Both the position numbers and the translations under genes were made by a program. The notes below the pieces were generated by a model that was given only the letters and a program-made list of their open reading frames with translations, was not told where the DNA came from and ran no database searches. Below, piece by piece: positions 8,764-25,371 of a stretch of 64,000 nt of DNA; within the stretch, counting starts at the first letter, position 1, and each line of letters starts with the position of its first letter. The stretch is from Gordonia jinghuaiqii (GTDB taxonomy: Bacteria > Actinomycetota > Actinomycetes > Mycobacteriales > Mycobacteriaceae): contig NZ_CP059491.1 of NCBI RefSeq assembly GCF_014041935.1, forward strand, positions 310,001-374,000, written 5' to 3'.

Positions 8764-10278
8764 ATGGCCCGTAGTCAAGCATTCGATGCCGTCGGTCAAC
8801 CGGAACGGCCGGCGTTCCGCCTCGGCGTGGTGTGGCCCGCCCGCGAGCACTCACGGGGATGGCTGAGCCTATATGCAACTCGCCTCGTGTGGTCCGACGC
8901 GCTGTTCGTGCTCGTCGCGGTTCTGCTCGCGCAGCAGATCCGCTTCGGCAGCGACAGCACGCTACAACCCAATGGTGCGTCCGCCATCCCGGCCGGAATC
9001 GTCTCGGTCACTCTTGTTGTCACGTGGATGTTGTCTCTCAAGGTCTTTCAGGCATTCGACAGGAGAATCCTCGGGGCCGGGTCGGTCGAGTACAGCCGCG
9101 TGGTGACATCGTCCTTCGCCGTCTTCGGCGTGTTGGCGATACTCGACCTGTTGTTCAACTTGAACATCGCACGTGGGTTCCTCGCCATCGCATTACCGCT
9201 GGGCACATCGGCGCTTCTCGCGTCCCGTTGGCTGTGGCGACGACATCTCGCCCACCAGCGAACCCGGTCGAAGAATCTCGAGCACATCCTGGTCATCGGC
9301 GGCCGGCGTTCTGCGGTCCCGCTGATGGACCGCTTGATGATCAATCCGAAACTCGGCTATCACGTTGTCGGCGTGTGTGTTCCGATGAAGGAGGGCCGCC
9401 GCGGCGAGATGTCGGTAGGAGAGGCGAAGGTTCCGATCTGGGGATCGTTCGCCGATGTGCGGGAGGCCGTGCAGAAATCCGGCGCCACGACAGTCGCTGT
9501 CACATCGGCCGAGGCGCTCGGACACACCGCGATGCAAGAACTCGCGTGGGATCTGCAGGGTCTGGACGTCGACATGGTGGTGTCGCCGGGGATCCTCGAC
9601 GTGGCCGGTCCGCGGATGATGGTGCGCCCGGTGTCGGGTCTGCCGTTGCTGCACATCGACAAACCCAGTTACGAAGGCGCGAACCGCTTTCGGAAGGCGG
9701 CGTTTGACCTGACCGGTTCGATCTTCATCCTGCTCGCGTTGCTGCCGGCCCTCTCCTTGATCGCAGTGGCCATCAAGCTCGACTCGAGTGGTCCGGTCTT
9801 CTACCGCGCCGACCGCGTGGGTGTCGGCAACGGGCGCTTCCGGATGTGGAAGTTCCGATCGATGGTGAAGGATGCCGACGCACTGAAGGCCGACCTGCGG
9901 AACCTCGACGAGGGTGCAGGTGCGTTGTTCAAGATCCGCGACGACCCGCGGGTGACGCGCGTCGGCAACTTCATCCGGCGCTACAGCCTCGACGAGCTGC
10001 CGCAACTGCTCAACGTCGTGACCGGTGACATGAGTCTGGTTGGACCACGCCCGCCGCTACCCGAGGAAGTCGAGAAATACGACGGCCGGGTGGCGCGGAG
10101 AATGCTGGTCAAGCCGGGGATGACAGGTCTGTGGCAGGTGTCGGGGCGGTCTGATCTGTCCTGGGAGGAGTCGGTGCGACTCGACCTGTCCTACGTCGAG
10201 AACTGGTCGATGATGCAGGATTTCGTGATCTTGTGGCGCACCTTCCGGGCGGTCGTCGCCAAGGAGGGCGCGTACTGA
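8764..10278 (+). CDS. Polyprenyl-phosphate sugar-1-phosphate transferase (WbaP/ExoY-like)
   Basis: Initiating phosphoglycosyltransferase, 504 residues, which moves a sugar-1-phosphate from a nucleotide sugar to undecaprenyl/decaprenyl phosphate at the inner membrane face. The N-terminal half has several hydrophobic segments (about residues 40-165), then a Rossmann-like CoA-binding-type region (ILVIGGRRSAVPL). The C-terminal catalytic domain begins with a membrane helix near residue 320. It carries FRMWKFRSMVKDAD, DELPQLLNVVTGDMSLVGPRP and KPGMTGLWQVSGRS. It is the first gene of the polysaccharide operon. A short direct repeat GGGCGCGTACTG overlaps and follows its stop codon. The sugar (Glc, Gal or other) cannot be assigned. 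Confidence 0.93.
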   Translation: MARSQAFDAVGQPERPAFRLGVVWPAREHSRGWLSLYATRLVWSDALFVLVAVLLAQQIRFGSDSTLQPNGASAIPAGIVSVTLVVTWMLSLKVFQAFDRRILGAGSVEYSRVVTSSFAVFGVLAILDLLFNLNIARGFLAIALPLGTSALLASRWLWRRHLAHQRTRSKNLEHILVIGGRRSAVPLMDRLMINPKLGYHVVGVCVPMKEGRRGEMSVGEAKVPIWGSFADVREAVQKSGATTVAVTSAEALGHTAMQELAWDLQGLDVDMVVSPGILDVAGPRMMVRPVSGLPLLHIDKPSYEGANRFRKAAFDLTGSIFILLALLPALSLIAVAIKLDSSGPVFYRADRVGVGNGRFRMWKFRSMVKDADALKADLRNLDEGAGALFKIRDDPRVTRVGNFIRRYSLDELPQLLNVVTGDMSLVGPRPPLPEEVEKYDGRVARRMLVKPGMTGLWQVSGRSDLSWEESVRLDLSYVENWSMMQDFVILWRTFRAVVAKEGAY

Positions 10279-10379: not shown

Positions 10380-11996
10380 ATGTCTGCTGTTTCCGATGTC
10401 GCCGACGTCAATGCCGCTGACTCCGCCGACGCTGACTCCGCCGGCGATGTGGTCGGAGACTTCCTCCGCATTGCCCGAGACGAGGCGAGCGGGATAGCGA
10501 TCGTCCACAACGGGGTGGAGATCACCTATCAGGAGCTCGCGCACCGGGTACGACGCACGGCGCGACGCTACCGGGCCCGCCTGCTCGAGCCCGACGATCG
10601 CGCCGGGTTCATCAGCGTGTTGGTCACCCATCGCCCCGCAGTGGTGGAGCACATGCTCGGTGTGCTCGCGGCCGGCGCCTGCTACTGCCCGATCGATGCG
10701 GCGCTTCCGAGTGCACGACAGCGAGCCCTCGCCGACACGGTCGGCGCCCGTCAGGTCTTCTCATCGGAGCCGATGGTGAAGGACGACACAGCCTTTGGTG
10801 TCGAGTTCATCGGCGATCGGCCGGTTGCCGAGGACGTCGGAAGGCCGGAGTCCTGGGTACCGGCAGGCGATCCGGCGTATGTCTTCTGCACGTCGGGATC
10901 GACCGGCGCGCCCAAGCCGGTGGTGGTGTCGCGACGCGCACTCTCCGCCACGGTCCGGGAGTTGCGCAGGCTCTTCGAGCTGACCGCCGACGATCGCGTG
11001 CTCCAGTTCGCCTCTCTTGCCTGGGACACCTGCCTGGAGGAGATCATGCCGGCGATCACCTGCGGCGCAACCCTCGTGTTCGACGACGCGGCCCACCGGG
11101 GCTCCTTCCCGGCATTCGTCCGGATGCTGGCGGAACAGCGAGTCACCGTGGTGGATCTGCCGACCGCGTTCTGGCATGAGTTGGTGCTCTACCTCCACGA
11201 ACAACGAACCGGGCACGAACAACGAACCGGGCACGAAGAACGAACCGGGCTGCCCACAGGTCTCCGCCTGGTGATCATCGGCGGTGAACGGGTCGATGAG
11301 ACTCGCCTACGGCAGTGGCGCGACCTAGGTCTCGATGACGTCAGGCTGCTCAACACCTACGGGTGCACGGAGACGACGATGATCACCCACGCCGTGCAGT
11401 TGGCAGGCCCGGGTACCGAAGGTGAGATCGCCGTCCCCGGCGCCGAGGCGCCGATAGGACGCAGGCTGCCCCATGTGGTCGATCGGGTCGGCGACGACGG
11501 TGAACTGCTGATCTCGGGTCCGGCGCTGGCGGATGGATATCTGGGGATGCCGGAAGTGACCGCCGACAGCTTTCCTGTCGAAGATCACGGCTCGGGTCGG
11601 GCTCGGTGGTTTCACACCGGGGACATCGTCTCCCTCGGACCCGACGGGATGCTGTACGCGCGGGGGCGTGCCGACGAGCAGCTGAAAGTGCTCGGCGTCC
11701 GGATTCACCCGGCCGAAGTGGAGATGCACCTGAGAACGCACCCGGCGATCGCCGGTGCCGTCGTGGTCGGCGAGCGGCGTCTGGAGCGCACGTCCCTGAT
11801 CGCCTATGTGGTTGTCGTGCAGGACATCACCCCGGCAGACCTCAAACGGTATCTGCGCGATCGGTTACCCAAGCAGTTCGTACCCAGCAGGGTGCGATTC
11901 GTCCCGGCCCTGAGCCACACCGCCAGCGGCAAGGTGGATCGGGCTGGAACCCATCGTGCCGCAACAGAACAGAAGGCGACGGAACACGTCCTATGA
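10380..11996 (+). CDS. Stand-alone NRPS-type adenylation domain
   Basis: Activates an amino acid (or related acid) as acyl-AMP and loads it on a carrier protein. It is about 538 residues with no condensation, carrier or thioesterase domain. The ATG at 10380 follows AGGAGGAAGATC, a very strong ribosome-binding site. Adenylation motifs are in order: A3 CTSGSTGAPKP near residue 166, A4 LAWDTCLEEIM, A5 NTYGCTETT near 325, A7 FHTGDIVSLGPDG, A8 DEQLKVLGVRIHPAEVE near 435, and A10 Lys in TASGKVDRAG near 518. By alignment to other A domains, the Asp that usually contacts the substrate amino group is present in WDT of A4. The gene stop overlaps the carrier-protein start (ATGA). An 18-base repeat present three times inserts HEQRTG units at 11196-11249. 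The partner substrate is unknown; a beta-amino acid from the downstream aminomutase is one possibility. Confidence 0.9.
   Translation: MSAVSDVADVNAADSADADSAGDVVGDFLRIARDEASGIAIVHNGVEITYQELAHRVRRTARRYRARLLEPDDRAGFISVLVTHRPAVVEHMLGVLAAGACYCPIDAALPSARQRALADTVGARQVFSSEPMVKDDTAFGVEFIGDRPVAEDVGRPESWVPAGDPAYVFCTSGSTGAPKPVVVSRRALSATVRELRRLFELTADDRVLQFASLAWDTCLEEIMPAITCGATLVFDDAAHRGSFPAFVRMLAEQRVTVVDLPTAFWHELVLYLHEQRTGHEQRTGHEERTGLPTGLRLVIIGGERVDETRLRQWRDLGLDDVRLLNTYGCTETTMITHAVQLAGPGTEGEIAVPGAEAPIGRRLPHVVDRVGDDGELLISGPALADGYLGMPEVTADSFPVEDHGSGRARWFHTGDIVSLGPDGMLYARGRADEQLKVLGVRIHPAEVEMHLRTHPAIAGAVVVGERRLERTSLIAYVVVVQDITPADLKRYLRDRLPKQFVPSRVRFVPALSHTASGKVDRAGTHRAATEQKATEHVL
11196..11249 (+). repeat. 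Three tandem 18-bp units inside the adenylation-domain gene
   Basis: The unit CACGAACAACGAACCGGG occurs at 11196-11213 and 11214-11231, and with one change at 11232-11249. It is a whole number of codons and encodes HEQRTG, HEQRTG, HEERTG in a surface loop between motifs A4 and A5. Copy number could vary between strains without breaking the frame. Confidence 0.95.
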
Positions 11997-12214
11997 GTGC
12001 TGATCACATCGTCAAGATATTCTGCCGGGTTCTCGATGAAACCGACGTGGAGCCGAGTTCTGACTTCTTCGAGCTCGGCGGAGACTCCCTACTCGCCACC
12101 CGGGTGCTCAGCGCCATCGCGCGCGACTTCGGTGTGGAGCTGACCTGGGAGGACTTCATCGAAAAGCCCACCCCCGAGGGACTGTTCGAACTCGTCCCGG
12201 AGGTAGAGCGATGA
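11993..12214 (+). CDS. Free-standing peptidyl/acyl carrier protein
   Basis: A 73-residue phosphopantetheine carrier. The attachment serine is Ser32 in the classic FFELGGDSLLATR motif, followed by the helix III region of carrier proteins. Its ATG overlaps the stop of the adenylation gene (ATGA). Its own stop overlaps the start of the amine oxidase (ATGA), so the three proteins should be made in step. It presumably receives the amino-acyl group from the adenylation domain and presents it to the oxidase, to an acyltransferase, or to both. It is not the fatty-acid AcpM, which is encoded in a different context and has a different sequence around the serine. Confidence 0.93.
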   Translation: MSADHIVKIFCRVLDETDVEPSSDFFELGGDSLLATRVLSAIARDFGVELTWEDFIEKPTPEGLFELVPEVER

Positions 12215-13578
12215 ACGCGGCGCCGCGTCGAGTGGTCGTCGTCGGGGCGGGGATCGCCGGTTTGACCGCGGCGCGTGAACTGGTTTCGGCGGGCGTCGAG
12301 GTCACCGTCGTGGAGGCCCGCGACCGGGTGGGTGGACGTATCGTCGGTGTGCCGATACTCGACGATGCGGTTGCAGACGGAGGAGCCGCCTATCTCGGCG
12401 ATCGGCATACCGAGTTGCTGGCCCTGGTCCATGAGTTCGGTCTATCGCTCGTCTCCACCGAAATGATCGGTGACAGCGCCTTTCTCATCTCGGCAGAGAG
12501 GACGACGACCGGCAGGAGGGTGCCACCCTTCAATCCGATCGCGCTCGGCGGATTGTTCGACTGCCTGCAAGAAGTCATCGACGGTGTCGATCCGGGCGCG
12601 CCGTGGGAGTCGACGGACGCCGAACGGCTCGACAACCTGACAGCCGACCGCTGGCTCGCCGGGCTACGCCTCCATCCGGATGCCGAGGAGTTCTTCCCCA
12701 TCTTCCTGGGCGAGATGATGGGAGCCGACCCGCACTCGATCTCTGTTCTGCACATGGCGGTGTATCTGCGATCGGGCGGCGGACTGCGCTACCTGAATGC
12801 CTTCGAAGGCGGCGCCCAACGATGGCGGATCGCCGGTGGTTCGCAGCGGCTGTGCGAGGCGATCGCTCTGCGGTTGGGTCCCCGCGTTGTTGTGAACGCA
12901 CCCGTCGTGGCGGTCGTGCAGGATGCGGATGAAGTGGTCGTGCGCTCTGTTTCGGTTGTCGACGGGGCCGAGTCCACGTTCCGTGCCGACCGCGTGATCA
13001 TCGCCGTACCGCCCCGGCTGGCACAGCGAATGGAGTTTCGTCCCGGCCTGTGCGAGCCGAGGGCGACCGAGGCGACGGCCCCCGGGTGCGTGATCAAGGT
13101 GCATCTGGGTTATCCCGCGCCGCTGTGGCGCAGACGGGGACTCTCGGGTTGGTCGGCCAGTACCGACGGGCCGGTCCAGTTCACCGTGGACGACTCACCG
13201 GCCGACGACTCCGTCGGTGTCCTCACCGGTTTCGTCACCGGTGCCGCGGCGCGCACTTTCACCGCGCTGTCCACGACCGAGCAGCGCTCGGCGGTGCTGA
13301 CCCACATCGGTCGACTCTTCCCGGAGTTGCCCGAACCGGCGGGTTTCTCGGTGACGGATTGGCCGGCCGAAGAGTACAGCGAGGGCTGCTACGCAGCTCT
13401 GTTCGGACCCGGCGACTGGCATCAGCTGGGGCCCCACCTGACCACACCGCACGGCCTCGTCCACTGGGCGGGCACCGAGACCTCGCTGGAGTTCTTCGGA
13501 CTCATGGAAGGCGCGATCAGGTCGGGCAAGCGGGCCGCAGCCGAATTGACCCTCGACATGGAAGGTGCGTTGCGATGA
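12211..13578 (+). CDS. Flavin amine oxidase (MAO-like)
   Basis: FAD-dependent amine oxidase of the monoamine/L-amino-acid oxidase superfamily, 455 residues. The FAD dinucleotide motif VVVGAGIAGLTAARE begins near residue 8, followed by VVEARDRVGGRI. The C-terminal FAD contact region reads HWAGTETSLEFFGLMEGAIRSG, as in MAO-type enzymes. No signal peptide or membrane anchor is seen, so it should be cytoplasmic. It is sandwiched by ATGA overlaps between the carrier protein and the radical SAM aminomutase. It may oxidise the free amino acid, the carrier-bound amino acid or an amino sugar; sequence alone does not decide. Confidence 0.9.
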   Translation: MNAAPRRVVVVGAGIAGLTAARELVSAGVEVTVVEARDRVGGRIVGVPILDDAVADGGAAYLGDRHTELLALVHEFGLSLVSTEMIGDSAFLISAERTTTGRRVPPFNPIALGGLFDCLQEVIDGVDPGAPWESTDAERLDNLTADRWLAGLRLHPDAEEFFPIFLGEMMGADPHSISVLHMAVYLRSGGGLRYLNAFEGGAQRWRIAGGSQRLCEAIALRLGPRVVVNAPVVAVVQDADEVVVRSVSVVDGAESTFRADRVIIAVPPRLAQRMEFRPGLCEPRATEATAPGCVIKVHLGYPAPLWRRRGLSGWSASTDGPVQFTVDDSPADDSVGVLTGFVTGAAARTFTALSTTEQRSAVLTHIGRLFPELPEPAGFSVTDWPAEEYSEGCYAALFGPGDWHQLGPHLTTPHGLVHWAGTETSLEFFGLMEGAIRSGKRAAAELTLDMEGALR

Positions 13579-14981
13579 GCGTACTCGGCGAGCATCACAT
13601 CGATCACGACGTCACGGTTGTCGATCAGCCCTACCGCTACGAACGCAGGCTACTGACCGAACCGGACTGGCGCCGGTACCCGGGCTGGGCCGACGTGGGT
13701 GAGCATGACTGGAACAACCCGCAGTGGCAACGCTCCCATTCGGTCAAGAACGTCCTGCAATTGCGTACGGTGCTGGGAGGTTTGCTCGATGAGCGCTTCT
13801 ACGCCGACCTTGTCGCCGACCAGCAGCAACGGGCCACGATGTCGATGCTGGTACCCCCGCAGATGCTCAACACCATCGCGCCGGCGTGGACACCGGGATC
13901 GGGATCTTTCACCGACGCCTTCTACGCGGATCCGATCCGGCGGTACATGGTGCCAGCGCTCAGCGATCGACGATCGGAATGGGGATCACACCCGCATGCA
14001 GAGCGGGATTCGTTGCACGAGAGCGATATGTGGGTCGTCGAGGGTCTGACACATCGGTATCCGACGAAGGTCCTCGCCGAGTTGCTGTCGACGTGCCCGC
14101 AATACTGTGGGCACTGCACCCGAATGGATCTCGTGGGGAATTCGACTCCGACGGTGAACAAGTCGAAACTCGCCCTCCGCCCTGCCGATCGCCAACAGAG
14201 AATGCTCGACTACCTACGTGCCACACCATCGGTCCGCGACGTGGTGGTGTCGGGGGGTGACGTCGCGAATGTTCCGTGGTATCGCCTGGAGTCGTTCGTG
14301 ATGGAGTTGCTGACTATCGATTCGATACGCGATATCCGCTTGGCGACAAAGGCATTGGCGACACTTCCCCAGCATTGGTTGCAGCCCGATGTGGTCGAGG
14401 GTGTCCATCGGGTGGCGAGTACCGCTGCCGCGCGCGGCGTGAACCTCGCGCTACACACGCACATCAATCACGCGAATTCGGTGACCCCGCTGGTTGCGGA
14501 AGCCACTCACGCACTACTCGACGCCGGGCTTCGTGACGTGCGCAATCAGGGCGTGCTCATGCGAGGCGTCAACGCCACCGTGAACGACCTCCTGGATCTG
14601 TGCTTCGCCCTTCAGGGCGAGGCGAACATCCTCCCGTACTACTTCTACATGTGCGACATGATCCCCAATTCCGAGCATTGGCGAACCTCGCTCGCACAGG
14701 CGCAGGATCTACAGCTGGGGATTCTGGGTTACCTGCCAGGCTTCGCCACACCGCGGATCGTCTGCGACGTGCCGTTCGTCGGGAAACGCTGGGTTCATCA
14801 AGCCGTCCATTACGACCGTGAGCTGGGGATCTCGTACTGGACCAAGAACTACCGGACCGCGCTGGATGCAGCCGATGACAAGGCATTGTCGCGCGTCTAC
14901 CCGTTCTTCGACCCCATCGACAGCTTGCCGGTCTCCGGGCAGGAGAAATGGCGCGCTGATACCGAAAGGAAGCCGTCGTGA
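13575..14981 (+). CDS. Lysine 2,3-aminomutase-like radical SAM/PLP enzyme (KamA family)
   Basis: A 468-residue radical SAM aminomutase that would shift an alpha-amino group to the beta position. The [4Fe-4S] motif CxxxCxxC is Cys174, Cys178 and Cys181 (CPQYCGHC). Comparing by eye with clostridial lysine 2,3-aminomutase, the carboxylate-binding Arg (KAM Arg134) is Arg183. The two Asp that hold the lysine side-chain amine (KAM Asp293 and Asp330) are Asp361 and Asp398. The PLP lysine (KAM Lys337, in a GGGGK loop) is Lys404, in a loop one residue shorter (DVPFVGK). SGGD and THINHANSVT blocks also match. A lysine-like substrate, giving beta-lysine, is therefore plausible but not proven. The gene starts within the oxidase stop (ATGA) and ends in a GTGA overlap with the next gene. 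Confidence 0.88.
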   Translation: MSVLGEHHIDHDVTVVDQPYRYERRLLTEPDWRRYPGWADVGEHDWNNPQWQRSHSVKNVLQLRTVLGGLLDERFYADLVADQQQRATMSMLVPPQMLNTIAPAWTPGSGSFTDAFYADPIRRYMVPALSDRRSEWGSHPHAERDSLHESDMWVVEGLTHRYPTKVLAELLSTCPQYCGHCTRMDLVGNSTPTVNKSKLALRPADRQQRMLDYLRATPSVRDVVVSGGDVANVPWYRLESFVMELLTIDSIRDIRLATKALATLPQHWLQPDVVEGVHRVASTAAARGVNLALHTHINHANSVTPLVAEATHALLDAGLRDVRNQGVLMRGVNATVNDLLDLCFALQGEANILPYYFYMCDMIPNSEHWRTSLAQAQDLQLGILGYLPGFATPRIVCDVPFVGKRWVHQAVHYDRELGISYWTKNYRTALDAADDKALSRVYPFFDPIDSLPVSGQEKWRADTERKPS

Positions 14982-15757
14982 ACAAGATCGAGGTGCTCGT
15001 GTGGCTCCTTCCCGCCGGCGCACGGAAGAACCGGTTGCTGCGGACGTTCGGGCACGAGATCGCCCCCACGGCGTGCATCGGACCGGTGCTGGCCATGAAC
15101 GTCGGGCACGTTGTCCTGGGGGACGGCGCACAGATCGGTCCGTTGAACCTCATCCGGTCTCTCCGTCGACTGACCATGGGTGCCGGTGCCACGGTCGGAT
15201 CGTTGAACACCATCTCATGTGCGCCCGAATTCCAGGAACTGCACATAGACGTGGGCGCGCTGGTGATGGGTGACGGCGCGATCATCACGAGCCGGCACTA
15301 CATCGACTGTTCGGGAATCGTCGAGATGGGTGACATGTCAGCCATCGGCGGTCAGCGAACCACGATCCTCAGTCACCAGATCGATCTGCCGATCAACGTC
15401 CAGTCGGCAGGTCTGGTCAGCCTCGGTGAGCGGTCACTGGTTCTGACCAACTGCCTACTGCTGAAAGGCGCTGCACTGCCGCGATACTCGCTGTTGATCG
15501 CGGAGTCGACCCTCAGCAGGTCCCGGAAACTCGATCCACCGCCGGGGATCTACGGAGGCACTCCTGCGGAGTTCATCAGGGCCAACACGGTCGACGACGG
15601 CGAGAGCTGGTTCGAGAGGGTGGAGAGTCCGACGACACGGCTGAGAGTGGACCTCCCTCGCGAGCGCCGCAAGGCCCGGCAACAGGAGAAACCAGAGTCC
15701 GAATCCGCACTGGCCGAGCAGCAATCCCCGCGACTCCTACGAAAGTTGTTCGCATGA
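14978..15757 (+). CDS. Left-handed beta-helix acyltransferase-like protein (first paralogue)
   Basis: A 259-residue protein built largely of hexapeptide-repeat sequence, the left-handed beta-helix fold of acetyl/acyltransferases. A central [11 protein letters not shown] block sits in an LbH run, and the C-terminal [12 protein letters not shown] resembles the end of WbbJ/LacA-type proteins. The GTG start overlaps the aminomutase stop. A homologue lies at the far end of the operon (29665-30606): both share KNRLL...GP/WPVL at the start, ITxRHYLDCSG in the middle and GxYxGxPAxxxR at the end. Its position directly behind the amino-acid cassette makes it a candidate for moving the carrier-bound acyl group to a sugar. 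A plain sugar O-acetyltransferase is the alternative. Confidence 0.8.
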
Positions 15758-16776
15758 AGAAGGCACTCATCACCGGGATCACCGGGCAGGACGGCTCGTA
15801 CCTGGCCGAACTGCTCCTGTCGAAGGGGTATGAAGTCCACGGCCTGATCCGACGCTGCTCGACCTTCAACACCTCCCGGATCGATCACCTCTATCAGGAT
15901 CCGCACGAGCCGGACGCGCGGCTGTTCCTGCACTACGGCGACCTCAGCGACGGCGCACGCCTGGTCACTCTGCTGAGCACGATCGAACCCGACGAGGTCT
16001 ACAACCTCGCTGCGCAATCCCATGTTCGGGTCAGCTTCGACGAACCCGAGCACACCGGGAACACGACCGGCATCGGGTCGATCAGACTGCTGGAAGCCGT
16101 GCGGCAGTCCAAGGTCCAGTGCCGCTACTACCAGGCCTCCAGCTCGGAGATGTTCGGTGCGTCACCCCCGCCCCAGTGCGAGACCACGGTGTTCTACCCG
16201 AGGTCCCCGTACGGGGCGGCGAAGGTCTACTCGTACTGGATCACCCGCAACTACCGCGAGGCGTACGACCTGTTCGCCGTCAACGGAATCCTGTTCAACC
16301 ACGAATCCCCCCGGCGCGGTGAGACATTCGTGACGCGAAAGATCACGCGTGCGGTCGCCCGGATCCAGGCCGGGCTCGAGAGTCACCTGTACTTGGGCAA
16401 CCTCGAGGCGGTGCGTGACTGGGGTTACGCGCCCGAGTACGTCGAAGGTATGTGGCGGATGCTGCAGGCCGACGAACCCTCCGATTACGTTCTTGCGACC
16501 GGACTTTCGTTCACTGTCCGGGATTTCGTGGAAAGAGCGTTCGATCATGCCGGCCTGTGTTGGCAAGACCATGTCCGTTTCGACGACCGATACCTGCGGC
16601 CGACGGAGGTGGACTCGCTGATCGGGGACGCGACCAAAGCTCGCGATCAGCTCGGCTGGAAGGCCGAGGTCGATGCCCCGGAAATCGCCCGGATCATGGT
16701 CGATGCCGACATCGCCGCACTGAGATGTGAAGGCACGTCGTGGATCGATCGTCCGGCGCTCGCGGATTGGAAGTAG
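15754..16776 (+). CDS. gmd: GDP-mannose 4,6-dehydratase
   Basis: Converts GDP-D-mannose to GDP-4-keto-6-deoxymannose, the first step to GDP-L-fucose, using tightly bound NADP. It has 340 residues, the expected length. Family signatures are [19 protein letters not shown] at the N-terminus, the [15 protein letters not shown] region, [12 protein letters not shown], catalytic SSSEMFG, and [12 protein letters not shown] with the Tyr-x3-Lys pair. [15 protein letters not shown] and the [20 protein letters not shown] block follow. The start is in an ATGA overlap with the preceding gene. The GDP-fucose synthase follows four bases after the stop. Confidence 0.97.
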
Positions 16777-16780
16777 CCCG

Positions 16781-17746
16781 ATGGCCGTCTTCACCCCCGC
16801 GCCGCTGGATCGGGACGCGACCGTCTACATCGCCGGACACCGCGGGCTGGTCGGCTCCGCGTTGTGGCGGCAGTTTCAGAGCCAGGGATTCCGAAACCTC
16901 GTCGGTCGAACCAGCAGCGCGCTCGACCTCCGTGACCGGGGGGATACGTTCTCGTTCATACGCGCGGTGCGTCCCGACGTCGTGATCCTCGCCGCGGCAC
17001 GGGTCGGCGGGATAATGGCGAACAGTACCCACCCGGTCGACTTCCTCTCCGAGAACCTGCAGATCCAGCTGAACGTTCTGGATGCCGCTGTCGAACAGCG
17101 GGTTCCACGCCTGCTGTTCCTGGGTTCGTCCTGCATCTACCCGAAGTATGCGGCGCAGCCCATTCGGGAGAATTCCTTGCTCACCGGCCCGCTGGAGCCC
17201 ACCAACGATGCCTACGCGATCGCCAAGATAGCCGGGATACTGCACATCCAGGCGGTTCGCCGTCAGCACGGTCTGCCCTGGATCTCCGCGATGCCGACCA
17301 ACCTCTACGGACCCGGCGACAACTTCTCGTCGACAAATTCCCACGTGCTGCCGGCGCTCATCCGACGATACGACGAGGCCGTCGCGTCAGGATCCGGCCG
17401 GGTGACGAACTGGGGTAGCGGGCGCCCCCGACGTGAGTTCCTCCACGTGGACGACATGGCGCGCGCGTGCCTGTGTCTTCTCGAACGCTACGACGGCCCG
17501 ACGCAGGTGAATGTCGGCGCCGGTCGGGATCAGACGATCGCTCGTATCGCCGAGATGGTGGCCGACGCGGTCGGCTACGACGGCGTCACCGAGTGGGACA
17601 CGAGCAAGCCGGACGGCACTCCTCGGAAGCTGCTGGATGTGTCGCTGCTGAATGGGATCGGCTGGCAGCCGGCCGTATCGATCGAGAGTGGCATCGCCGA
17701 CACCGTGGCCTGGTACCGCGCCAATCTGGCCGGTCTTCGGGTGTAA
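16781..17746 (+). CDS. fcl: GDP-L-fucose synthase
   Basis: Bifunctional epimerase/reductase that turns GDP-4-keto-6-deoxymannose into GDP-L-fucose with NADPH; 321 residues. It shows the NADP motif AGHRGLVGSALWR, the AAARVGGI loop, the SSCIYPKYAAQPI segment with catalytic residues, and the Tyr-x3-Lys pair in DAYAIAKIAG. PTNLYGPGDNFSSTNSHVLPALIRR is diagnostic for this enzyme. The open frame reaches back into gmd, but the ATG at 16781, four bases after the gmd stop, starts just before the conserved region. Together with gmd it predicts fucose (or a fucose-derived sugar) in the polymer. Confidence 0.96.
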   Translation: MAVFTPAPLDRDATVYIAGHRGLVGSALWRQFQSQGFRNLVGRTSSALDLRDRGDTFSFIRAVRPDVVILAAARVGGIMANSTHPVDFLSENLQIQLNVLDAAVEQRVPRLLFLGSSCIYPKYAAQPIRENSLLTGPLEPTNDAYAIAKIAGILHIQAVRRQHGLPWISAMPTNLYGPGDNFSSTNSHVLPALIRRYDEAVASGSGRVTNWGSGRPRREFLHVDDMARACLCLLERYDGPTQVNVGAGRDQTIARIAEMVADAVGYDGVTEWDTSKPDGTPRKLLDVSLLNGIGWQPAVSIESGIADTVAWYRANLAGLRV

Positions 17747-17768: not shown

Positions 17769-18341
17769 GTGAGCGCGATGACTGCACGTACCTCAGAGTC
17801 GACATCGGGGCGATTCGCACTGCGGGACTTCCGCGGTGAGGGCTACGACAAAGGCCGCGGTCCCGTGACCCAGGTTGCGTGGTTCATCGTGCGGTCGGTG
17901 CTGATGTGCTGGTGGGTGCCGGCGCGGGCGCGGGTCGCCGTGCTCCGGCTCTTCGGGGCGGACATCGGCGAGCGAGTGCTGATCCGCCACGACGTCCGCA
18001 TCCACTGGCCGTGGAAGCTGTCAGTCGGGGACGACACCTGGATCGGCGAGCAGGCGTGGATCCTCAACTTGGAACCTGTCCGGATCGGCGCCAACACCTG
18101 TATCTCACAGGGTGTTCTGCTGTGTACCGGCAGCCACGATCGCTTCTCGGTATCGTTCGCTTTCGACAACGCTCCCATCACCATCGGCGAATCCGTGTGG
18201 ATCGCCACGCGCGCAACAGTTCTCCGAGGCGTGCGGGTCGGCGACCGCGCCCTGGTGGGTGCGACTGCCCTCGTCACCCACGACGTCGATCGAGACGCGA
18301 TGGTCATCGCTCCGACAGGGAGAGAGGTCGAGAGACCATGA
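17769..18341 (+). CDS. Colanic-acid-type O-acetyltransferase (WcaF-like LbH)
   Basis: A small serine/hexapeptide acetyltransferase, about 190 residues, that would use acetyl-CoA to acetylate a sugar of the repeat unit. The layout (RGEGYDKGR, WFIVRSVL, RLFGADIGERVLIRHDVRIHWPWKLSVGD, ISQGVLLCTGSHD, then VWIATRATVLRGVRVGDRALVGA) is that of WcaF/WcaB-type enzymes. The His of the active site is in TGSHD. GTG at 17769 has AAGGAA just upstream; the ATG at 17778 is an alternative. Its stop overlaps the start of the glycosyltransferase that follows. Co-occurrence with a WcaI-like transferase resembles part of the enteric colanic acid cluster. Confidence 0.88.
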   Translation: MSAMTARTSESTSGRFALRDFRGEGYDKGRGPVTQVAWFIVRSVLMCWWVPARARVAVLRLFGADIGERVLIRHDVRIHWPWKLSVGDDTWIGEQAWILNLEPVRIGANTCISQGVLLCTGSHDRFSVSFAFDNAPITIGESVWIATRATVLRGVRVGDRALVGATALVTHDVDRDAMVIAPTGREVERP

Positions 18342-19651
18342 GAATACTTCTGACCGGTATCAACTACGCACCCGAGGTGACGGGGATCGCGCCCTACACG
18401 ACCGGACTGGCCGAAGGGCTCGCCGAACGCGGCCACCAGGTGGACGTCGTGACGGGCCTGCCGCACTACCCGGAATGGCGGGTCGCCGACGGCTGGGGCT
18501 CCGAATCCGGATCGACATCGACCCGGAACAGTGTGGGAATCAGGCGAATTCACCACCATGTCCCATCGGTTCCGTCGCTCAAGGGCCGACTCAGGATGGA
18601 GGTCAGCTTCGGTCTGCACGCCGTGGCCGCGCGCGCACCGCGTCCCGACCTCGTCCTTGCCGTCACCCCGGCGCTGATCGCGAGCGCCATGGTGATCGCA
18701 CGTGCCCGTGTCCGGGGAGTGCCGGCGGGATTGATCGTCCAGGATCTCTACGGACTCGGCGTACGCGAAACCGGGTCGGCGTTCGGGCCGGCCGCGTCGT
18801 CGGTGAGCCGGTTCGAGGCAACGGTGTTCCGCCGGGCATCCGGGGTGGCGGTGATTCACGACCACTTTCGCGACAGCGTCGTGGAGATGGGCGTCGACAA
18901 AGAGCATGTGACGGTGATCCGCAACTGGTCACACTTCACACCCGCAGGGACGAAGCGTGTGTCGGCGGAGATGTCACGGCGCACCAGGCACGCGTACGGG
19001 TGGCGGGAAGACGAGATCGTCGTCCTGCACGCCGGCAACATGGGCCTCAAGCAGGGACTCGACAATGTCATTGAAGCAGCTCGGCTGGCCGATGCGCGCA
19101 ATCTGCCGGTGCGCTTCGTGCTCGTCGGCGACGGCAACCAGCGCGCCAGGCTTCAGGAGATGGCCGGTGGCGGAGGGCATCTGGACATGATCGATCCGTT
19201 GCCGGAAGAAGAGTTCAGGGCGATCGTCGCTGCTGCTGACCTCCTCCTGGTCAATGAGTTGCCCGGGGTCCGTGAGATGGCCGTTCCGAGCAAACTCACC
19301 ACATACTTCGCGGCCGCCCATCCCGTGATCGGTGCTGTCGACGCGAACGGTGTCACTGCCGGCGAGATCTTCAGTTCGGGTGCCGGCACGGTGGTACCGC
19401 CGGGTGATCCGTGCGCACTGGTGGAGGAGGCATGCCGACTCGGGCATGACGAAGACCAGTGTACGGAGTTCGCCGCATGCGGACCGGCGTACGCGCACAA
19501 GGTGCTGAGTGTGCGGTCGGCGATCGACCAGTATGCGGAGTGGTGCGAGCGGCTGGCGTCTCAGCGCGGACGCGCGTCCGCGTCCGTGGCGTATTCGCCG
19601 GGTGCGCAACAGCCATCCGCTGCAACCGACCCGGCGGGGAGGTGGCTCTGA
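18338..19651 (+). CDS. GT4 glycosyltransferase (WcaI-like)
   Basis: A cytoplasmic-face glycosyltransferase of the GT-B/GT4 type, 437 residues. It opens with MRILLTGINYAPEVTGIAPYT, the characteristic N-terminus of colanic acid transferase WcaI and related enzymes. The acceptor-domain segment TGLPHYPEWR also fits. The donor domain has VVLHAGNMGLKQGLDNVIEAA, FVLVGDGNQR and PSKLTTYFAA. In WcaI the donor is GDP-fucose, so this gene is a reasonable candidate to use the product of gmd and fcl, but that is inference. The start overlaps the previous stop (ATGA) and the stop overlaps the next start (TGATG). A 30-residue low-complexity tail follows the catalytic part. Confidence 0.9.
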   Translation: MRILLTGINYAPEVTGIAPYTTGLAEGLAERGHQVDVVTGLPHYPEWRVADGWGSESGSTSTRNSVGIRRIHHHVPSVPSLKGRLRMEVSFGLHAVAARAPRPDLVLAVTPALIASAMVIARARVRGVPAGLIVQDLYGLGVRETGSAFGPAASSVSRFEATVFRRASGVAVIHDHFRDSVVEMGVDKEHVTVIRNWSHFTPAGTKRVSAEMSRRTRHAYGWREDEIVVLHAGNMGLKQGLDNVIEAARLADARNLPVRFVLVGDGNQRARLQEMAGGGGHLDMIDPLPEEEFRAIVAAADLLLVNELPGVREMAVPSKLTTYFAAAHPVIGAVDANGVTAGEIFSSGAGTVVPPGDPCALVEEACRLGHDEDQCTEFAACGPAYAHKVLSVRSAIDQYAEWCERLASQRGRASASVAYSPGAQQPSAATDPAGRWL

Positions 19652-20829
19652 TGCGTGTTGTTCATGTGGTGACCCTTCTCAGCCCCGATGGTGCGTACGG
19701 CGGCCCGACGCGTGTCGCGCTGAATGTGGCCGAGGAGCTGATCCGACGGGGCGTCGACGTGGAGGTCGCCGCCGGGACGCGAGGTTTCGACCAGCCGCCG
19801 ACTTCTGTCGGCGCCGTGCCTCTACGGCTCTTCGGGGTCGTGTCGGTCCTGCCGAAGGTCGGGTTCGCAGGCCTGGCATCCCCGCGGCAGGTGTGGTGGT
19901 TTGTGCGGTCAGCGCGACGGTTCGACGTGGTGCATGTCCATCTCGCGCGGGATCTTGTGACACCCATCATCGCCGCGATCGCGTTGATCCTGCGCAAGCC
20001 CGTGTTCGTGCAGACGCATGGCATGATCGACGCCTCCGACAGACTGCTGAGCCGGCCGTTCGATCTGTTGCTGATCAGGCCGATCCTGCGACGGGCGCGG
20101 GCGGTGTTCTGCCTGACCGACGACGAGGCTGCCGAAATCGCTGTCGTGGAGCGTGATTCTCGAGTGGTGATCCTCGCCAACGGGGTGCCGGTTCCGCCGC
20201 AGCATCTACGTGCGCGACCGGCGCGGGAGACCCGCCGGTTGAAGGTCCTCTTCCTGGCCCGGCTCCACGAGCGCAAGCGACCGATGCACCTGGTGCGGGC
20301 GGCGCTCGCCCTGCTCGAGACCGACGGTGATGTGGAGCTGGCCCTTGTCGGGCCGGACGAGGGGGAGGGCGAGCAGGTGGTACGCGCGATCCGCGAATCG
20401 GATTTCGCGTCACGGATCACATGGGAAGGTCCGATCGAGCCGTCGAAGACTCTGCCGCGTATGGCCGAGGCCGACGTGTATGTCCTGCCTTCGGTCAACG
20501 AACCGTTTGGGATGACCGTGCTCGAGGCGATGTCGATCGGTCTTCCCGTCGTGGTCACCGACAGTTGCGGGCTCGCCCGGGCAGTGGCGGAGGGGGAGGC
20601 GGGAATCGTCGTCGATGACTCGGTCGAAGCCCTCACTGCCGCAATCGATCGGTACCGGTGCGATCCGGCGCTGGTGGAACGGCACGGTGCCCACGCCCGT
20701 CGTCTGGTCTCGGAGTCGTACTGCATGGCCGATGTCGGAACGGTGCTGATGCGGGAGTATCAGGCGCCGGCGGGTCGGGATCACGGTCATGATGATGCAG
20801 CGAACGCGAATCGAGCAGTGCGATGCTGA
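19651..20829 (+). CDS. GT4 glycosyltransferase
   Basis: Second GT-B glycosyltransferase of the operon, 392 residues. The N-terminus VVHVVTLLSPDGAYGGPTRVA is the glycine-rich donor/acceptor loop. The middle has FVQTHGMID and ILANGVPVPP. The donor site has the EPFGMTVLEAMSIGLPVVVTD block with the Glu-x7-Glu pattern of GT4 retaining enzymes. The start is in a TGATG overlap with the upstream transferase. The donor and acceptor cannot be assigned. The last 20 residues are polar and probably disordered. Confidence 0.92.
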   Translation: MRVVHVVTLLSPDGAYGGPTRVALNVAEELIRRGVDVEVAAGTRGFDQPPTSVGAVPLRLFGVVSVLPKVGFAGLASPRQVWWFVRSARRFDVVHVHLARDLVTPIIAAIALILRKPVFVQTHGMIDASDRLLSRPFDLLLIRPILRRARAVFCLTDDEAAEIAVVERDSRVVILANGVPVPPQHLRARPARETRRLKVLFLARLHERKRPMHLVRAALALLETDGDVELALVGPDEGEGEQVVRAIRESDFASRITWEGPIEPSKTLPRMAEADVYVLPSVNEPFGMTVLEAMSIGLPVVVTDSCGLARAVAEGEAGIVVDDSVEALTAAIDRYRCDPALVERHGAHARRLVSESYCMADVGTVLMREYQAPAGRDHGHDDAANANRAVRC

Positions 20830-21599: not shown

Positions 21600-23895
21600 A
21601 CGAGCTCTGGGCACACCGAACACGTCCGCGTCGGCACTGCTGGGCATACAGCAGATCTGGGCGGCGCTGACCGTAGTCGTGGCAGTCGCGGCTACGTCCT
21701 GTGCGGGACTCGGCAGCGCCGCGGGTTTTGCGATCCTCGCGACGGTCTACGCGCCCTGGCTGGTGGTCAGCGATGTGCTGAGTTCGACTGCGCGGCAACG
21801 GCGGAGAACTGCATCGCCGACTGATCTGTATGTTGTCGTCGGTCGTGAGGCGCCCCCGGCGTCCATCGCTTCGGTCGGCATCTGCGTATGCGCGCTCGGC
21901 ATCTCGGTGTTTGTCGGGCCGCAGGGCCGCACCATCGGTGACGCGGTGTTCGTGTCGCGGGGCACAACGATCCTGGTGGCCTTGGGGTTTGGCGCGATGG
22001 TGTGGCTGCGAGTGCTCATCCGCGCTCAGAGCGCGACCGGCCGGCAGAACGTCGCCCACAGACTGGCGGCCCTCGTCGTCGGTGTCACGTTTCTGACGTC
22101 GTTGATCTCGACACTCGTTCTCGGCTCTCTCGTCGGGAGCGCCTTCGGTTTCGCCATCGGCGCGCTCCTGGTGGTGATCGGTGGGTATCTCCTGCTGGTC
22201 CCGTGGTCGCCGTCAGAACTGGCCGGTGGCATGCGGCCGGTTGCCGCCCGCCATGACGAACAACGCCATGCGCCGACCGAAGGCGAACCCGAGAGCGACG
22301 CGCCGTCGAAACCCGTCGACGGGTCAGCGGTTCGTCGTGCATATGCAGGTCTGTGCGTCTTCGCCCTGTTCGGCGTTCTGGTTCCCGCCTACGTGATCGT
22401 CAGCGGGCCGGCGAGAGCGGGGGGTCTGTGGCTCCTGTTGGTTCCGGTCGTTCTGGTGGCGGCGATGCGCCTGGCCTGGCTGGTTCGCCGCGGGGAGCGC
22501 CGGCTTCTCGAAATGACCTTCTGGGTGTTCACGTACACGTTCATGGGGCTGGCGCCTCTGGCGCAGATCCGCGATCACTCCTCGCCTGCCACGGTCGCCA
22601 GAGTGTCGTGGGACCTGGTGCCGAGTGCCGCAGGCCTGGTGCTGTTCGGAATCGTTACGTTCCTGATCGGGACCTTCGTCGCGTCACGGGTGACAGCGCG
22701 CCTGTCCACCGCGGCCGATGATGCGGAGAGCTCCTCCGCCGCACCACATGTCTCGGTCTCCTACCGCAAGCTCATCGCACTGTCGGTCGTCACCGTCCTC
22801 GTGAACTTCTACTACTTGGCCAACGTCGGCGTGATCCAGTTCACCAGTAGCCGCGTCGAAGCGGTGCTGGCCTATCGGTCGGTATGGGCCGCCGGATCGA
22901 TCGGGATCCTGATCCTCCCGGCGACGTGCATGAGCCTCCTGGTGACCTGGGTGGCCTGGATGCGGTTTCGACGAGAGATCCGGGCCATGGCGTCGGCAGG
23001 ACATCAGTTCCCCCCGACGATGTGGCGGGTGAGCCTGTTCTTCACCATCGTCCTGGGCCTGCTGCTGGCGAACACCATGAATCCGATCTCGAATGCGCGG
23101 TACCTCTCGGGTACGGCGTTGCTCGCGGCAGCGGTGGCGTTCGGGTTCTTCTCCACCAGCAATCGATTCCGGGTGATGGTCGTGACTTTTGTCCTCGCGT
23201 TCGTGGTGATCTTTCCGCTGGCGGACGCCTTCAGATTCTCCGACTCCGCGGAGTTCAAGGCGAGCGGACCGATGGAGGCGCTGCTGTCGCCCGACTTCGA
23301 TTCATTCGCTCAGGTCAACAACGGACTGCTGGTTGCCGCTCGTGAGGGAGTGGAGCCGGGACGTCAATTCATCGGCGTACTCCTGTGGTGGTTCCCGCGG
23401 TCGTTGTGGCCGGAAAAGCCGTTGGACACCGGGATATACATCGCGAACAACCGCGGATACGCCTTCGGCAACCTCTCGGCACCGTTGTGGGTCGAGTTCC
23501 TCCTGAACGGCGGCTGGATCCTGGTGGCGGCCGGGATGGCGATCCTCGGCTATGTCTGTTACCGGTTCGATTCGGCGATCGATGCGCAGATGCAGCACAC
23601 GGCGATGCCGACGGTGCTCGGTACGATTCTTCCCTTCTACCTCCTGATCCTCCTCAGAGGATCACTGCTGCAAGCGATGTCGTTTCTCAGTTTCATCCTG
23701 ATGTTCGCGTTCATCGTGCGGGCCAAACCCGCCCCGGCCGGCGGGATCTTCAACCGTCGATGGCTGCCCGACTCTCTTCGGTATGCCGATGCCGACATCG
23801 GATCAGTACCCGACTCGCCGACGGGACTCGTGCCGGATCACGCGGTGCCCAGCGCAGCGGGCCATCACCGGGTAGGTCACGTTGTCCGGATATGA
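21589..23895 (+). CDS. O-antigen/exopolysaccharide polymerase (Wzy-like), large
   Basis: Integral membrane protein of about 768 residues with many hydrophobic segments (roughly 14 by eye) and a cytoplasmic or periplasmic linker around residues 215-245 (HDEQRHAPTEGEPESD). Its position among Wzx, Wzz and transferase genes and a long polar loop before the last four helices fit a Wzy/O-antigen-ligase-superfamily polymerase that joins repeat units in the periplasmic space. A WWFPRSLWPEKP segment near the C-terminus recurs in actinobacterial and firmicute polymerases of this kind. GTG at 21589 is chosen because the frame upstream reads through the previous gene. It is longer than the usual 400-500 residues. 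Confidence 0.78.
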   Translation: MIRRRALGTPNTSASALLGIQQIWAALTVVVAVAATSCAGLGSAAGFAILATVYAPWLVVSDVLSSTARQRRRTASPTDLYVVVGREAPPASIASVGICVCALGISVFVGPQGRTIGDAVFVSRGTTILVALGFGAMVWLRVLIRAQSATGRQNVAHRLAALVVGVTFLTSLISTLVLGSLVGSAFGFAIGALLVVIGGYLLLVPWSPSELAGGMRPVAARHDEQRHAPTEGEPESDAPSKPVDGSAVRRAYAGLCVFALFGVLVPAYVIVSGPARAGGLWLLLVPVVLVAAMRLAWLVRRGERRLLEMTFWVFTYTFMGLAPLAQIRDHSSPATVARVSWDLVPSAAGLVLFGIVTFLIGTFVASRVTARLSTAADDAESSSAAPHVSVSYRKLIALSVVTVLVNFYYLANVGVIQFTSSRVEAVLAYRSVWAAGSIGILILPATCMSLLVTWVAWMRFRREIRAMASAGHQFPPTMWRVSLFFTIVLGLLLANTMNPISNARYLSGTALLAAAVAFGFFSTSNRFRVMVVTFVLAFVVIFPLADAFRFSDSAEFKASGPMEALLSPDFDSFAQVNNGLLVAAREGVEPGRQFIGVLLWWFPRSLWPEKPLDTGIYIANNRGYAFGNLSAPLWVEFLLNGGWILVAAGMAILGYVCYRFDSAIDAQMQHTAMPTVLGTILPFYLLILLRGSLLQAMSFLSFILMFAFIVRAKPAPAGGIFNRRWLPDSLRYADADIGSVPDSPTGLVPDHAVPSAAGHHRVGHVVRI

Positions 23896-24664: not shown

Positions 24665-25356
24665 TGAACGACTACCAGGAGCTGATGAGATCCCTGCGTG
24701 GTCGCTGGGCGCTCGTCCTCGCCGGAGTGCTGGCCGGAATGTCCCTCGGCGCAGTGTTTTCGATGGTTCAGCCGGTGACCTACGCGGCCACCGCGCGGAT
24801 CTTCATCGCCACGCCGGTGTGGAACGACATGATCGGCGACGGGAGCGCGGCCTCGGGATCGAGTGCTGCGATAGCCAGTCTCACCGGCGGTGACACCAAG
24901 ACCTCATACGGGAACCAGTTCACGCAACAGCGGATGCCGACATACCTGGCTCTCTTGACCACGCCGGCGGTATTGGGACCGGCGGCGGCGAAACTCGAGA
25001 CCACCGAGGCAGACCTGGGTTCACGGGTCACCGGTCGGCTTGTTCCGGAGACCGTCATGCTCGACGTCACGGTGACGTCGGACTCGGCGGCACGAGCTGC
25101 CGACGAGGCCAACGCGACGGCTGCCGGTTACATCGATGTGCTGAGAAGCCTCGAGTCGCCGTCATCGGTGACGGCGGCGGCATCGCCGGTGCAACCGGTG
25201 GTGGTCGCCGGTGCATCGGCGCCCAGCTCCGCGAGTGCACCGAACGTGCTGGTACACGTCGCCGTCGGAGGAACCCTCGGAATGTTGGCCGCCGTGGCGA
25301 TCGCGGTGTCATCGCGACCGCGCCGGCAACAGTGGCGTCGACGGCATTCGCGCTAG
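24664..25356 (+). CDS. Wzz-like chain-length/copolymerase protein without kinase domain
   Basis: A 230-residue protein with two membrane helices, near residues 16-36 and near 198-218, and an external domain between them. This is the topology of polysaccharide copolymerases. The start MNDYQELMRSLRGRW and the first periplasmic strand TYAATARIFIATP are typical of the Wzz family. It has only a few basic residues after the second helix and no kinase. It overlaps the SGNH gene start/stop and is followed 15 bases later by a second Wzz protein. The two probably work as a pair to set chain length. Confidence 0.85.
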   Translation: MNDYQELMRSLRGRWALVLAGVLAGMSLGAVFSMVQPVTYAATARIFIATPVWNDMIGDGSAASGSSAAIASLTGGDTKTSYGNQFTQQRMPTYLALLTTPAVLGPAAAKLETTEADLGSRVTGRLVPETVMLDVTVTSDSAARAADEANATAAGYIDVLRSLESPSSVTAAASPVQPVVVAGASAPSSASAPNVLVHVAVGGTLGMLAAVAIAVSSRPRRQQWRRRHSR

Positions 25357-25371
25357 AGAACGGACGAGAAA

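What the first reader, a model, noticed from the sequence alone, without database searches (positions are those of the whole stretch)
10380..15757. Amino-acid making and activating cassette inside a fucose exopolysaccharide operon
Five genes (adenylation domain, free carrier protein, flavin amine oxidase, lysine-2,3-aminomutase-like radical SAM enzyme, LbH acyltransferase-like protein) lie head to tail with ATGA/GTGA overlaps, between the initiating sugar transferase and gmd/fcl. Each family is known, but I know of no described exopolysaccharide pathway with this set. There is no condensation or thioesterase domain, so the loaded acyl group must leave to something outside a peptide line. The simplest inference is that a beta-amino acid, or an oxidised derivative, is attached to a sugar hydroxyl or amine of the repeat unit. 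The overlaps predict stoichiometric expression. I did not search for relatives, and the linkage to sugar is unproven.
Basis: partly seen in the sequence, partly recalled or inferred. Interest (0 to 1): 0.8.

Follow-up and report, generated by a model that had tools for sequence, protein, structure and literature searches.

The report
Probable beta-lysine cassette in exopolysaccharide operon
A soil-type bacterium appears to make the unusual amino acid beta-lysine, load it on a carrier protein, oxidise it and hand it to a secreted sugar polymer, a use so far known to us only from antibiotics such as streptothricin; the last step, attachment to the sugar, is inferred and not shown.

Summary
The five genes are there as described (10380-15757), overlapping by ATGA or GTGA, inside a 19-gene fucose exopolysaccharide operon (8764-30606) without condensation or thioesterase domains. 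Relatives sharpen and partly correct the reading. Four genes (A, T, amine oxidase OX, aminomutase KAM) form the core: in that order in 16 of 19 Mycobacteriaceae loci compared; the other three genomes carry the missing A or OX elsewhere. KAM keeps every tested lysine 2,3-aminomutase residue (79 of 79); 39 of 66 outside relatives sit beside lysine 5,6-aminomutase genes. The A-domain code (DTEDIGTMIK; DTED[VI]GT[ML][VI]K in all 17) resembles two A domains of a streptothricin-type cluster, whose KAM is 65% identical. So the amino acid is most likely beta-lysine. The fifth gene, LBH, is not core: 14 loci have a weakly GNAT-like gene instead, 5 an LbH gene, none both. But those five are exactly the gmd (fucose) loci, so LBH may follow the polymer type; a transferase matched to its acceptor would look the same. 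OX is putrescine-oxidase-like and is fused to T in one relative. Transfer to sugar, and what OX makes, remain inferred. Nine completed paper searches showed no description.

The parts
8764..10278 (+). initiating polyprenyl glycosylphosphotransferase of the EPS operon
   Evidence: Pfam Bac_transf 7.6e-67, NCBIfam EPS_sugtrans above cut-off
10380..11996 (+). stand-alone adenylation (A) domain, predicted to activate beta-lysine
   Evidence: specificity code DTEDIGTMIK, 17 of 17 cassette A domains compared fit DTED[VI]GT[ML][VI]K
11993..12214 (+). free carrier protein (T), Ser32 of GGDSL
   Evidence: Pfam PP-binding; Ser position
12211..13578 (+). flavin amine oxidase (OX), MAO/putrescine-oxidase-like, Cys393 at the covalent-FAD position
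13575..14981 (+). lysine 2,3-aminomutase (KAM)
14978..15757 (+). LbH acyltransferase-like protein LBH1, candidate transferase from carrier to sugar
   Evidence: invariant H107, D110, H133, D136
15754..16776 (+). GDP-mannose 4,6-dehydratase (gmd)
   Evidence: NCBIfam gmd above cut-off
16781..17746 (+). GDP-L-fucose synthase (fcl)
   Evidence: NCBIfam GDPFucSynFcl 419 bits, below cut-off 500
17778..18341 (+). WcaF-like acetyltransferase
   Evidence: 177 bits, cut-off 192
18338..20829 (+). two family-4 glycosyltransferases
   Evidence: Pfam
21679..23895 (+). probable Wzy-like polymerase (16 hydrophobic segments, no Pfam match)
   Evidence: assignment by inspection
24664..26679 (+). two Wzz-like chain-length proteins
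   Evidence: Pfam Wzz 6.9e-5 (23.5 bits, just below cut-off 25.5) and 5.2e-6 (27.1 bits, above it)
28311..29675 (+). probable Wzx-like flippase (12 hydrophobic segments, no Pfam match)
   Evidence: assignment by inspection
29665..30606 (+). second LbH protein LBH2, paralogue of LBH1 (32% identity)

Best explanation
The cassette decorates the exopolysaccharide with a beta-lysine-derived acyl group. KAM turns L-lysine into L-beta-lysine (supported by residues and relatives). The A domain adenylates beta-lysine and loads it as a thioester on the free carrier T (supported by the specificity code and the KAM partnership; not assayed). OX, a monoamine/putrescine-oxidase-type flavoenzyme, oxidises the loaded group, most plausibly at the C6 amine, giving an aldehyde that would close onto the C3 amine as a 1-pyrroline (inferred). 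LBH1, or in other polymer types a GNAT-like protein, moves the acyl group from the carrier to a sugar of the repeat unit before flipping and polymerisation (inferred from position, from mutual exclusion, and from the precedent of LbH acyltransferases that use carrier-protein thioesters, LpxA and LpxD, recalled).
For: KAM: Cys triad plus R134, D293, D330 and K337 equivalents of C. subterminale aminomutase kept in 79 of 79 rows (roles recalled). Of 66 outside loci with KAM at 69-73% identity, 39 have lysine 5,6-aminomutase (KamD) genes in the flanks and 32 have KamD, KamE, KAL and KDD all together; one representative of each is above its NCBIfam cut-off. Streptothricin-type cluster: KAM 65% identical, A domains 37% and 41% identical with codes DTENVGTLVK and DTEVVGTLVK. 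A code conserved in 17 of 17 compared. A-T-OX-KAM order in 16 of 19; the missing A or OX lies elsewhere in the other three genomes. OX at E<=1e-120 in 6 of 381 family genomes, all six KAM-positive. A and OX of four outside clusters form one group each, but the three KAMs found there fall at three separate places among outside KAMs. T and OX are one open frame in L105. Close LBH1 and the GNAT-like gene exclude each other in 8 of 8 genomes. Representative neighbours tested are a family-2 glycosyltransferase, polysaccharide deacetylase, GH39- and GH16-type proteins, polysaccharide lyase and a GlmS-type protein.
Against: No biochemical or structural proof of any step. The five LbH loci are exactly the five with gmd, so LBH may simply belong to the fucose polymer; this lowers its weight as a carrier-to-sugar transferase. 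The GNAT-like call rests on a Pfam match below the cut-off (17.4 bits against 20.7), and its model was unusable (pLDDT 46); the LBH1 model (64.8) gave no Foldseek match at E<=0.001. In 27 of 66 outside loci, all 16 Amycolatopsis among them, no KamD or KamE was in the flanks. No amino-sugar gene was recognised in this operon, so the acceptor would be a hydroxyl unless GlcN enters otherwise. Some kin of A-T-OX-KAM lie beside polyketide genes. OX has Leu431 for MAO Tyr435 and lacks the Glu324 equivalent of putrescine oxidase (Phe here, Ser in the other 19 rows). The T-OX fusion is one case in an 82% complete assembly and could be a sequence error. L003 has only a 34% LbH relative.
Confidence: 0.5

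Rival explanations
1. The cassette makes a free small molecule (an antibiotic, signal or siderophore-like compound) from beta-lysine and only happens to sit in polysaccharide loci.
For: Related A-T-OX-KAM sets with an extra AMP-ligase lie beside polyketide synthase genes (by inspection) in L099 and L106; in L105 and L107 no PKS was seen. The closest named A domains examined are in a streptothricin-type cluster. PKS/NRPS-like genes (by inspection) lie near KAM in L011 and L094.
Against: Mycobacteriaceae cassettes sit with different polysaccharide genes; in this operon no NRPS or PKS domain beyond A and T and no drug exporter was recognised.
Confidence: 0.2
2. Beta-lysine is loaded and oxidised as proposed, but LBH1 is an ordinary sugar O-acetyltransferase that belongs to the fucose polymer, and the transferase is another gene or the A domain itself, as ORF19 does in streptothricin.
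For: The LbH loci are exactly the gmd loci, 5 of 5. WcaF-like and other LbH proteins of EPS operons are mostly acetyltransferases (recalled); two more LbH paralogues exist in this genome. A stand-alone A domain can extend a beta-lysine chain (PMC9606270, passages).
Against: In 401 family genomes LBH1 at 66% or more occurs only in the three gmd-type cassette genomes, the next match being 49%. Of the 17 LBH1 relatives listed on contigs over 20 kb (the window's own included), 12 share a contig length with the KAM or A lists, and one more (277842) is the L008 contig.
Confidence: 0.3
3. KAM plus GNAT or LBH makes an N-acetyl-beta-lysine osmolyte (AblA/AblB logic) and A-T-OX serve something else.
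For: KAM with a GNAT is the known AblA/AblB pair (recalled); 14 of 19 loci have KAM-GNAT-like neighbours.
Against: The GNAT-like protein matches no NCBIfam model at E<=0.001, AblB included (one representative); all 19 KAM loci or their genomes also carry A and OX.
Confidence: 0.08
4. OX acts first, on free lysine, beta-lysine or a diamine, and the A domain activates the oxidised (cyclic) acid rather than beta-lysine.
For: OX is closest in the PDB to monoamine oxidase 8p84 and putrescine oxidase, which act on free amines (recalled).
Against: The A code matches A domains of a cluster type whose product carries beta-lysine; T-OX fusion in L105.
Confidence: 0.2

Closest known systems
Streptothricin beta-lysine module (KAM, stand-alone A domain ORF19, PCP-C protein ORF18)
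   Same: KAM 65% identical; A domains 37% and 41% identical with near-identical code; beta-lysine on an amino sugar (gulosamine). That the S. globosus cluster is streptothricin-type is my inference from its annotated genes.
   Different: Has a condensation-domain protein and no annotated amine oxidase in the stretch seen; the acceptor is a small sugar, not a polymer repeat unit
Viomycin VioO/VioP (A-PCP for beta-lysine and aminomutase)
   Same: Same pairing (recalled); one cassette A homologue, P0205, is named VioO by its source
   Different: Peptide acceptor, NRPS context; not compared by sequence here
D-alanylation of teichoic acid (DltA/DltC)
   Same: A domain plus free carrier feeding an amino acyl ester of a surface polymer (recalled); DltA model matched at 169 bits
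   Different: Below the DltA cut-off (476); no DltB or DltD recognised; beta-amino acid, oxidase and mutase are added; intracellular transferase proposed
Lincosamide synthetase (LmbC, LmbN carrier domain)
   Same: An NRPS A domain plus a carrier domain joins an amino acid to an amino sugar in an unusual condensation system (PMC4351081, abstract)
   Different: Different amino acid and partners; antibiotic, not polymer
Clusters L099 and L106 (polyketide-type), and kin L105 and L107
   Same: A, T and OX homologous; KAM within 10 kb in L099, L106 and L107
   Different: Carry an extra AMP-ligase of about 570 aa; their KAMs group separately; in L105, an 11-kb contig, no KAM is seen

Membership tests
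Lysine 2,3-aminomutase (KamA) | Radical SAM CxxxCxxC, PLP lysine, carboxylate Arg and two ammonium-binding Asp | tested here: met
   79 of 79 rows keep all seven positions; alignment to 2a5h E 7.6e-43; roles recalled
Lysine 2,3-aminomutase (KamA) | NCBIfam equivalog cut-off TIGR03820 | tested here: not met
   158.7 bits against 525.4, though it is the best-scoring model; this lowers the formal assignment
Lysine 2,3-aminomutase (KamA) | Activity on L-lysine | not testable with these tools
   Indirect: 39 of 66 outside relatives lie near KamD genes
Beta-lysine-activating stand-alone A domain (ORF19/VioO type) | Specificity code like that of beta-lysine A domains | tested here: met
   DTEDIGTMIK against DTENVGTLVK and DTEVVGTLVK in a streptothricin-type cluster; a third A domain there is unlike, DVEEVGVVSK; positions placed by motif, numbering recalled
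Beta-lysine-activating stand-alone A domain (ORF19/VioO type) | Beta-lysine-dependent ATP-PPi exchange | not testable with these tools
   -
Wzx/Wzy-dependent EPS operon | Initiating transferase, glycosyltransferases, Wzz | tested here: met
   (one of two Wzz matches just below the Pfam cut-off)
Wzx/Wzy-dependent EPS operon | Flippase and polymerase families | tested here: inconclusive
   No Pfam match; 12 and 16 hydrophobic segments
Dlt system | DltA cut-off and DltB/DltD partners | tested here: not met
   169 bits against 476; no such partner among the 19 genes by Pfam
Putrescine/monoamine oxidase family | FAD domain, active-site Lys, covalent-FAD Cys and aromatic cage | tested here: inconclusive
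   Family match, Lys296, Cys393 and Tyr394 kept; second cage residue is Leu; PuO Glu324 replaced
AblA/AblB osmolyte pathway | AblB acetyltransferase partner | tested here: not met
   GNAT-like protein of a relative has no NCBIfam match and is absent from this genome at E<=1e-5

The most novel reading that the evidence does not exclude
A new class of bacterial exopolysaccharide whose repeat unit carries an oxidised beta-lysine (1-pyrroline or aldehyde) group, made by a portable four-gene cassette that is combined with different polymers and acceptor-matched transferases; the reactive group would let the matrix cross-link itself or bind amines and surfaces.
Probability: 0.18. Interest if true: 0.82.

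Novelty: new variant of a known kind. Interest (0 to 1): 0.6.

Why it matters
Beta-lysine activation is known to us from a few antibiotics. Finding it as a conserved part of Mycobacteriaceae surface-polysaccharide loci predicts cationic or reactive polymers in environmental relatives of mycobacteria that composition analysis after acid hydrolysis could miss. The LBH and GNAT-like proteins are a testable pair of candidate carrier-protein-to-sugar transferases, and the T-OX pairing points to amine oxidation on a carrier protein.

Tried and rejected
Considered and dropped: glutamate, arginine or EF-P aminomutase for KAM (111.8, 124.9 and 109.3 bits, below the 158.7 of lysine 2,3-aminomutase). DltA-like D-alanyl ligase for A. 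LBH as a fixed member of the cassette. A Pls/PosA-type role for the LbH protein (E 1.4e-4 only).

Led nowhere: GNAT-like structure (pLDDT 46). LBH1 fold search (130 matches at E<=10, none at E<=0.001; the top ones mostly LbH proteins). Paper search for the code string DTEDVGTMVK, which I recalled as a published beta-lysine code: 0 papers. Searches for beta-lysine with polysaccharide and Rhodococcus, aminomutase with exopolysaccharide, beta-lysine with exopolysaccharide or capsule (15 of 2,578 listed), lysine with exopolysaccharide and Mycobacterium (10 of 436 listed), aminomutase with amine oxidase clusters, beta-lysine adenylation (25 of 78 listed), streptothricin stand-alone A domain (12 of 38 listed) and Gordonia fucose EPS: I saw listings; nothing listed described this cassette. 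Two macrolactam papers (PMC11284099, PMC10662134) were looked at by passages; the term lysine has no occurrence in either. The product of the polyketide-type clusters was not identified. A further A-domain match, in G630 (38%), lies in an NRPS-type locus without T, OX or KAM hits (L100). Of eight plasmid records with an A match only the best was examined.

Limits: gene calls in relatives come from my own simple caller, not Prodigal. One search used 118 of the 120 listed A rows, and contig identity was inferred from equal contig length. The homologue searches list 120 rows and depend on shared short words; one search did not list the 33-49% relatives that one search found, apart from one protein at 35%. 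The family searches score only the best few candidates per genome. G390 and G394 are KAM-positive but absent from the 381-genome OX table, probably not drawn; they do carry OX. I take the two 401-genome family draws to be the same set. T was not searched for in G394 and M. aurum; a gap of about 235 bases between the OX and A matches in G394 would fit it. Nine of 66 outside KAMs (L016, L021, L028, L041, L042, L051, L057, L077, L078) are not in the tree.
Full report
What is there. The window lies in a 5.18-Mb single-contig genome. They follow the initiating glycosylphosphotransferase and precede gmd, fcl, a WcaF-like acetyltransferase, two family-4 glycosyltransferases, a Wzy-like and a Wzx-like membrane protein (by inspection), two Wzz-like proteins, an SGNH hydrolase, a GH71-type protein and a second LbH protein. 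None of the 19 genes has a condensation or thioesterase domain by Pfam.

The conserved unit is four genes. With KAM as bait I compared the window and 18 Mycobacteriaceae loci (second copies of the same contig left out). KAM is in 19 of 19, A and T in 17, OX in 16; A-T-OX-KAM stand in that order in 16, one of them (L095) with a short extra ORF called between T and OX. In L011 and L094 A and OX lie about 21 kb from KAM in the same genome; in L015 A and T are in place and OX is on another contig. In 401 family genomes KAM at E<=1e-100 occurs in 8; OX at E<=1e-120 in 6 of 381, all among those 8.

The amino acid. KAM keeps the three cluster cysteines, the Arg134, Asp293 and Asp330 equivalents and the PLP lysine of Clostridium aminomutase in 79 of 79 rows (roles recalled). 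Among 66 outside loci with KAM at 69-73% identity, 39 have KamD (lysine 5,6-aminomutase alpha) within the flanks and 32 have KamD, KamE, KAL and KDD together, for example in Nocardioides and Actinokineospora; the other 27, including all 16 Amycolatopsis, have no KamD or KamE there. One representative of each of the four proteins is above its NCBIfam cut-off. That is a lysine fermentation-type pathway that starts with beta-lysine. The A domain has the code DTEDIGTMIK, and the 17 cassette A domains compared fit DTED[VI]GT[ML][VI]K. A Streptomyces globosus plasmid cluster annotated with capreomycidine synthase, arginine hydroxylase, PIG-L deacetylase and KAM (streptothricin-type, my inference) has two stand-alone A domains with DTENVGTLVK (next to a condensation-domain protein, as ORF19 is to ORF18) and DTEVVGTLVK, and a KAM 65% identical to ours. 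A third A domain there has an unlike code (DVEEVGVVSK). Streptothricins carry beta-lysine on gulosamine (PMC11702664, passages), and ORF19 extends it on carrier-bound beta-lysine (PMC9606270, passages).

Repeated partnership. Homologous A-T-OX sets occur in one same-class genome and three same-order genomes outside the family. Their A and OX each form one group (A 93/93, OX 100/100) apart from the cassette group (A only 79/78, OX 100/100). The three KAMs found there fall at three separate places among the outside KAMs, whereas the 19 cassette KAMs are one clade at 100/100; two of the three have long branches (L107, L099). I infer that A-T-OX and KAM came together more than once, which is easiest to explain if A-T-OX works on beta-lysine. 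In L105 T and OX are one uninterrupted frame, a hint that OX works on the loaded carrier; a sequencing slip is not excluded.

The transferase slot. Right after KAM, 14 of 19 loci have a gene with a weak, below-cut-off GNAT match. The other five, including the window, have an LbH gene in the locus: LBH1-type in four (in L008 about 11 kb from KAM) and a 34% relative in L003. In eight whole genomes the GNAT-like gene is in five and close LBH1 (66% or more) in the other three, never both; the five have no LbH match even at E<=1e-15. On the KAM tree the LbH type needs four changes, at least three forced by supported branches; without L003 it needs three; the scatter is hardly tighter than chance (54 of 500 shuffles as low). 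Against a clean reading: the five LbH loci are exactly the five with gmd, so the whole fucose gene set, LBH included, may have been swapped around the cassette. LBH1 relatives of 59% or more number 31 in the protein search, the window's own included; of 17 on contigs over 20 kb, 12 share the contig length of a listed KAM or A and a thirteenth is the L008 contig. So LBH1 goes with the cassette as well as with gmd. I read LBH1 and the GNAT-like protein as transferases matched to different acceptors; a plain acetyltransferase is the main rival.

The oxidase. OX is closest in the PDB to a monoamine oxidase (8p84) and to putrescine oxidase. It keeps the active-site lysine, a cysteine where MAO binds FAD covalently, and the first cage tyrosine; the second is leucine in all 20 rows. 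Beta-lysine holds a 1,4-diamine as putrescine does, so oxidation at C6 with closure to 1-pyrroline is the simplest chemistry. This step is inference.

Other loci. GNAT-type cassettes lie with a polysaccharide deacetylase (7 loci by clustering), a family-2 glycosyltransferase (7), glycoside hydrolases or a GlmS-type protein (3 of the 4 GlmS loci are of this type), which would fit acylation of an amino sugar there; in the fucose operon no amino-sugar gene was recognised.

Verdict. Observation confirmed; interpretation partly supported and sharpened to beta-lysine. Known kinds of enzyme in what appears to be a new assembly and a new use; nine completed paper searches (open-licence papers, listings only) showed no description. 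Attachment to the polymer is the open step.

Noticed in passing
window 29665-30606; G000:C1:1239296-1239925: Two further LbH paralogues of LBH1 in the same genome, one closing this operon and one far away.
   Followed up: partly
window 11196-11249: An 18-base unit (cacgaacaacgaaccggg) in three copies, the third with one change, inside the A-domain gene, giving HEQRTGHEQRTGHEERTG.
   Followed up: no
L099, L105, L106, L107: Clusters with A, T, OX, an AMP-ligase of about 570 aa distantly like 3-aminoavenalumate diazotase (L106: 357 bits against 975), KAM (not seen in L105), and in L099 and L106 a type I PKS by inspection; product not identified.
   Followed up: partly
39 of the loci L016-L081: Lysine fermentation-type genes (KamA with KamD, mostly also KamE, KAL and KDD) in many actinomycetes such as Nocardioides and Actinokineospora.
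   Followed up: partly
window 26756-28204 and 23960-24664: A GH71-type protein and an Rv0518-like SGNH hydrolase inside the EPS operon, possible trimming or deacylation enzymes.
   Followed up: no
L002, L004, L014, L015: A glmS-like gene directly or nearly upstream of the A gene, suggesting amino-sugar supply for the polymer there.
   Followed up: no
L011, L094: KAM-GNAT-like pair split about 21 kb from A and OX, with PKS/NRPS-like genes (by inspection) and a second, clear GNAT-domain (PF13480) gene nearby.
   Followed up: partly
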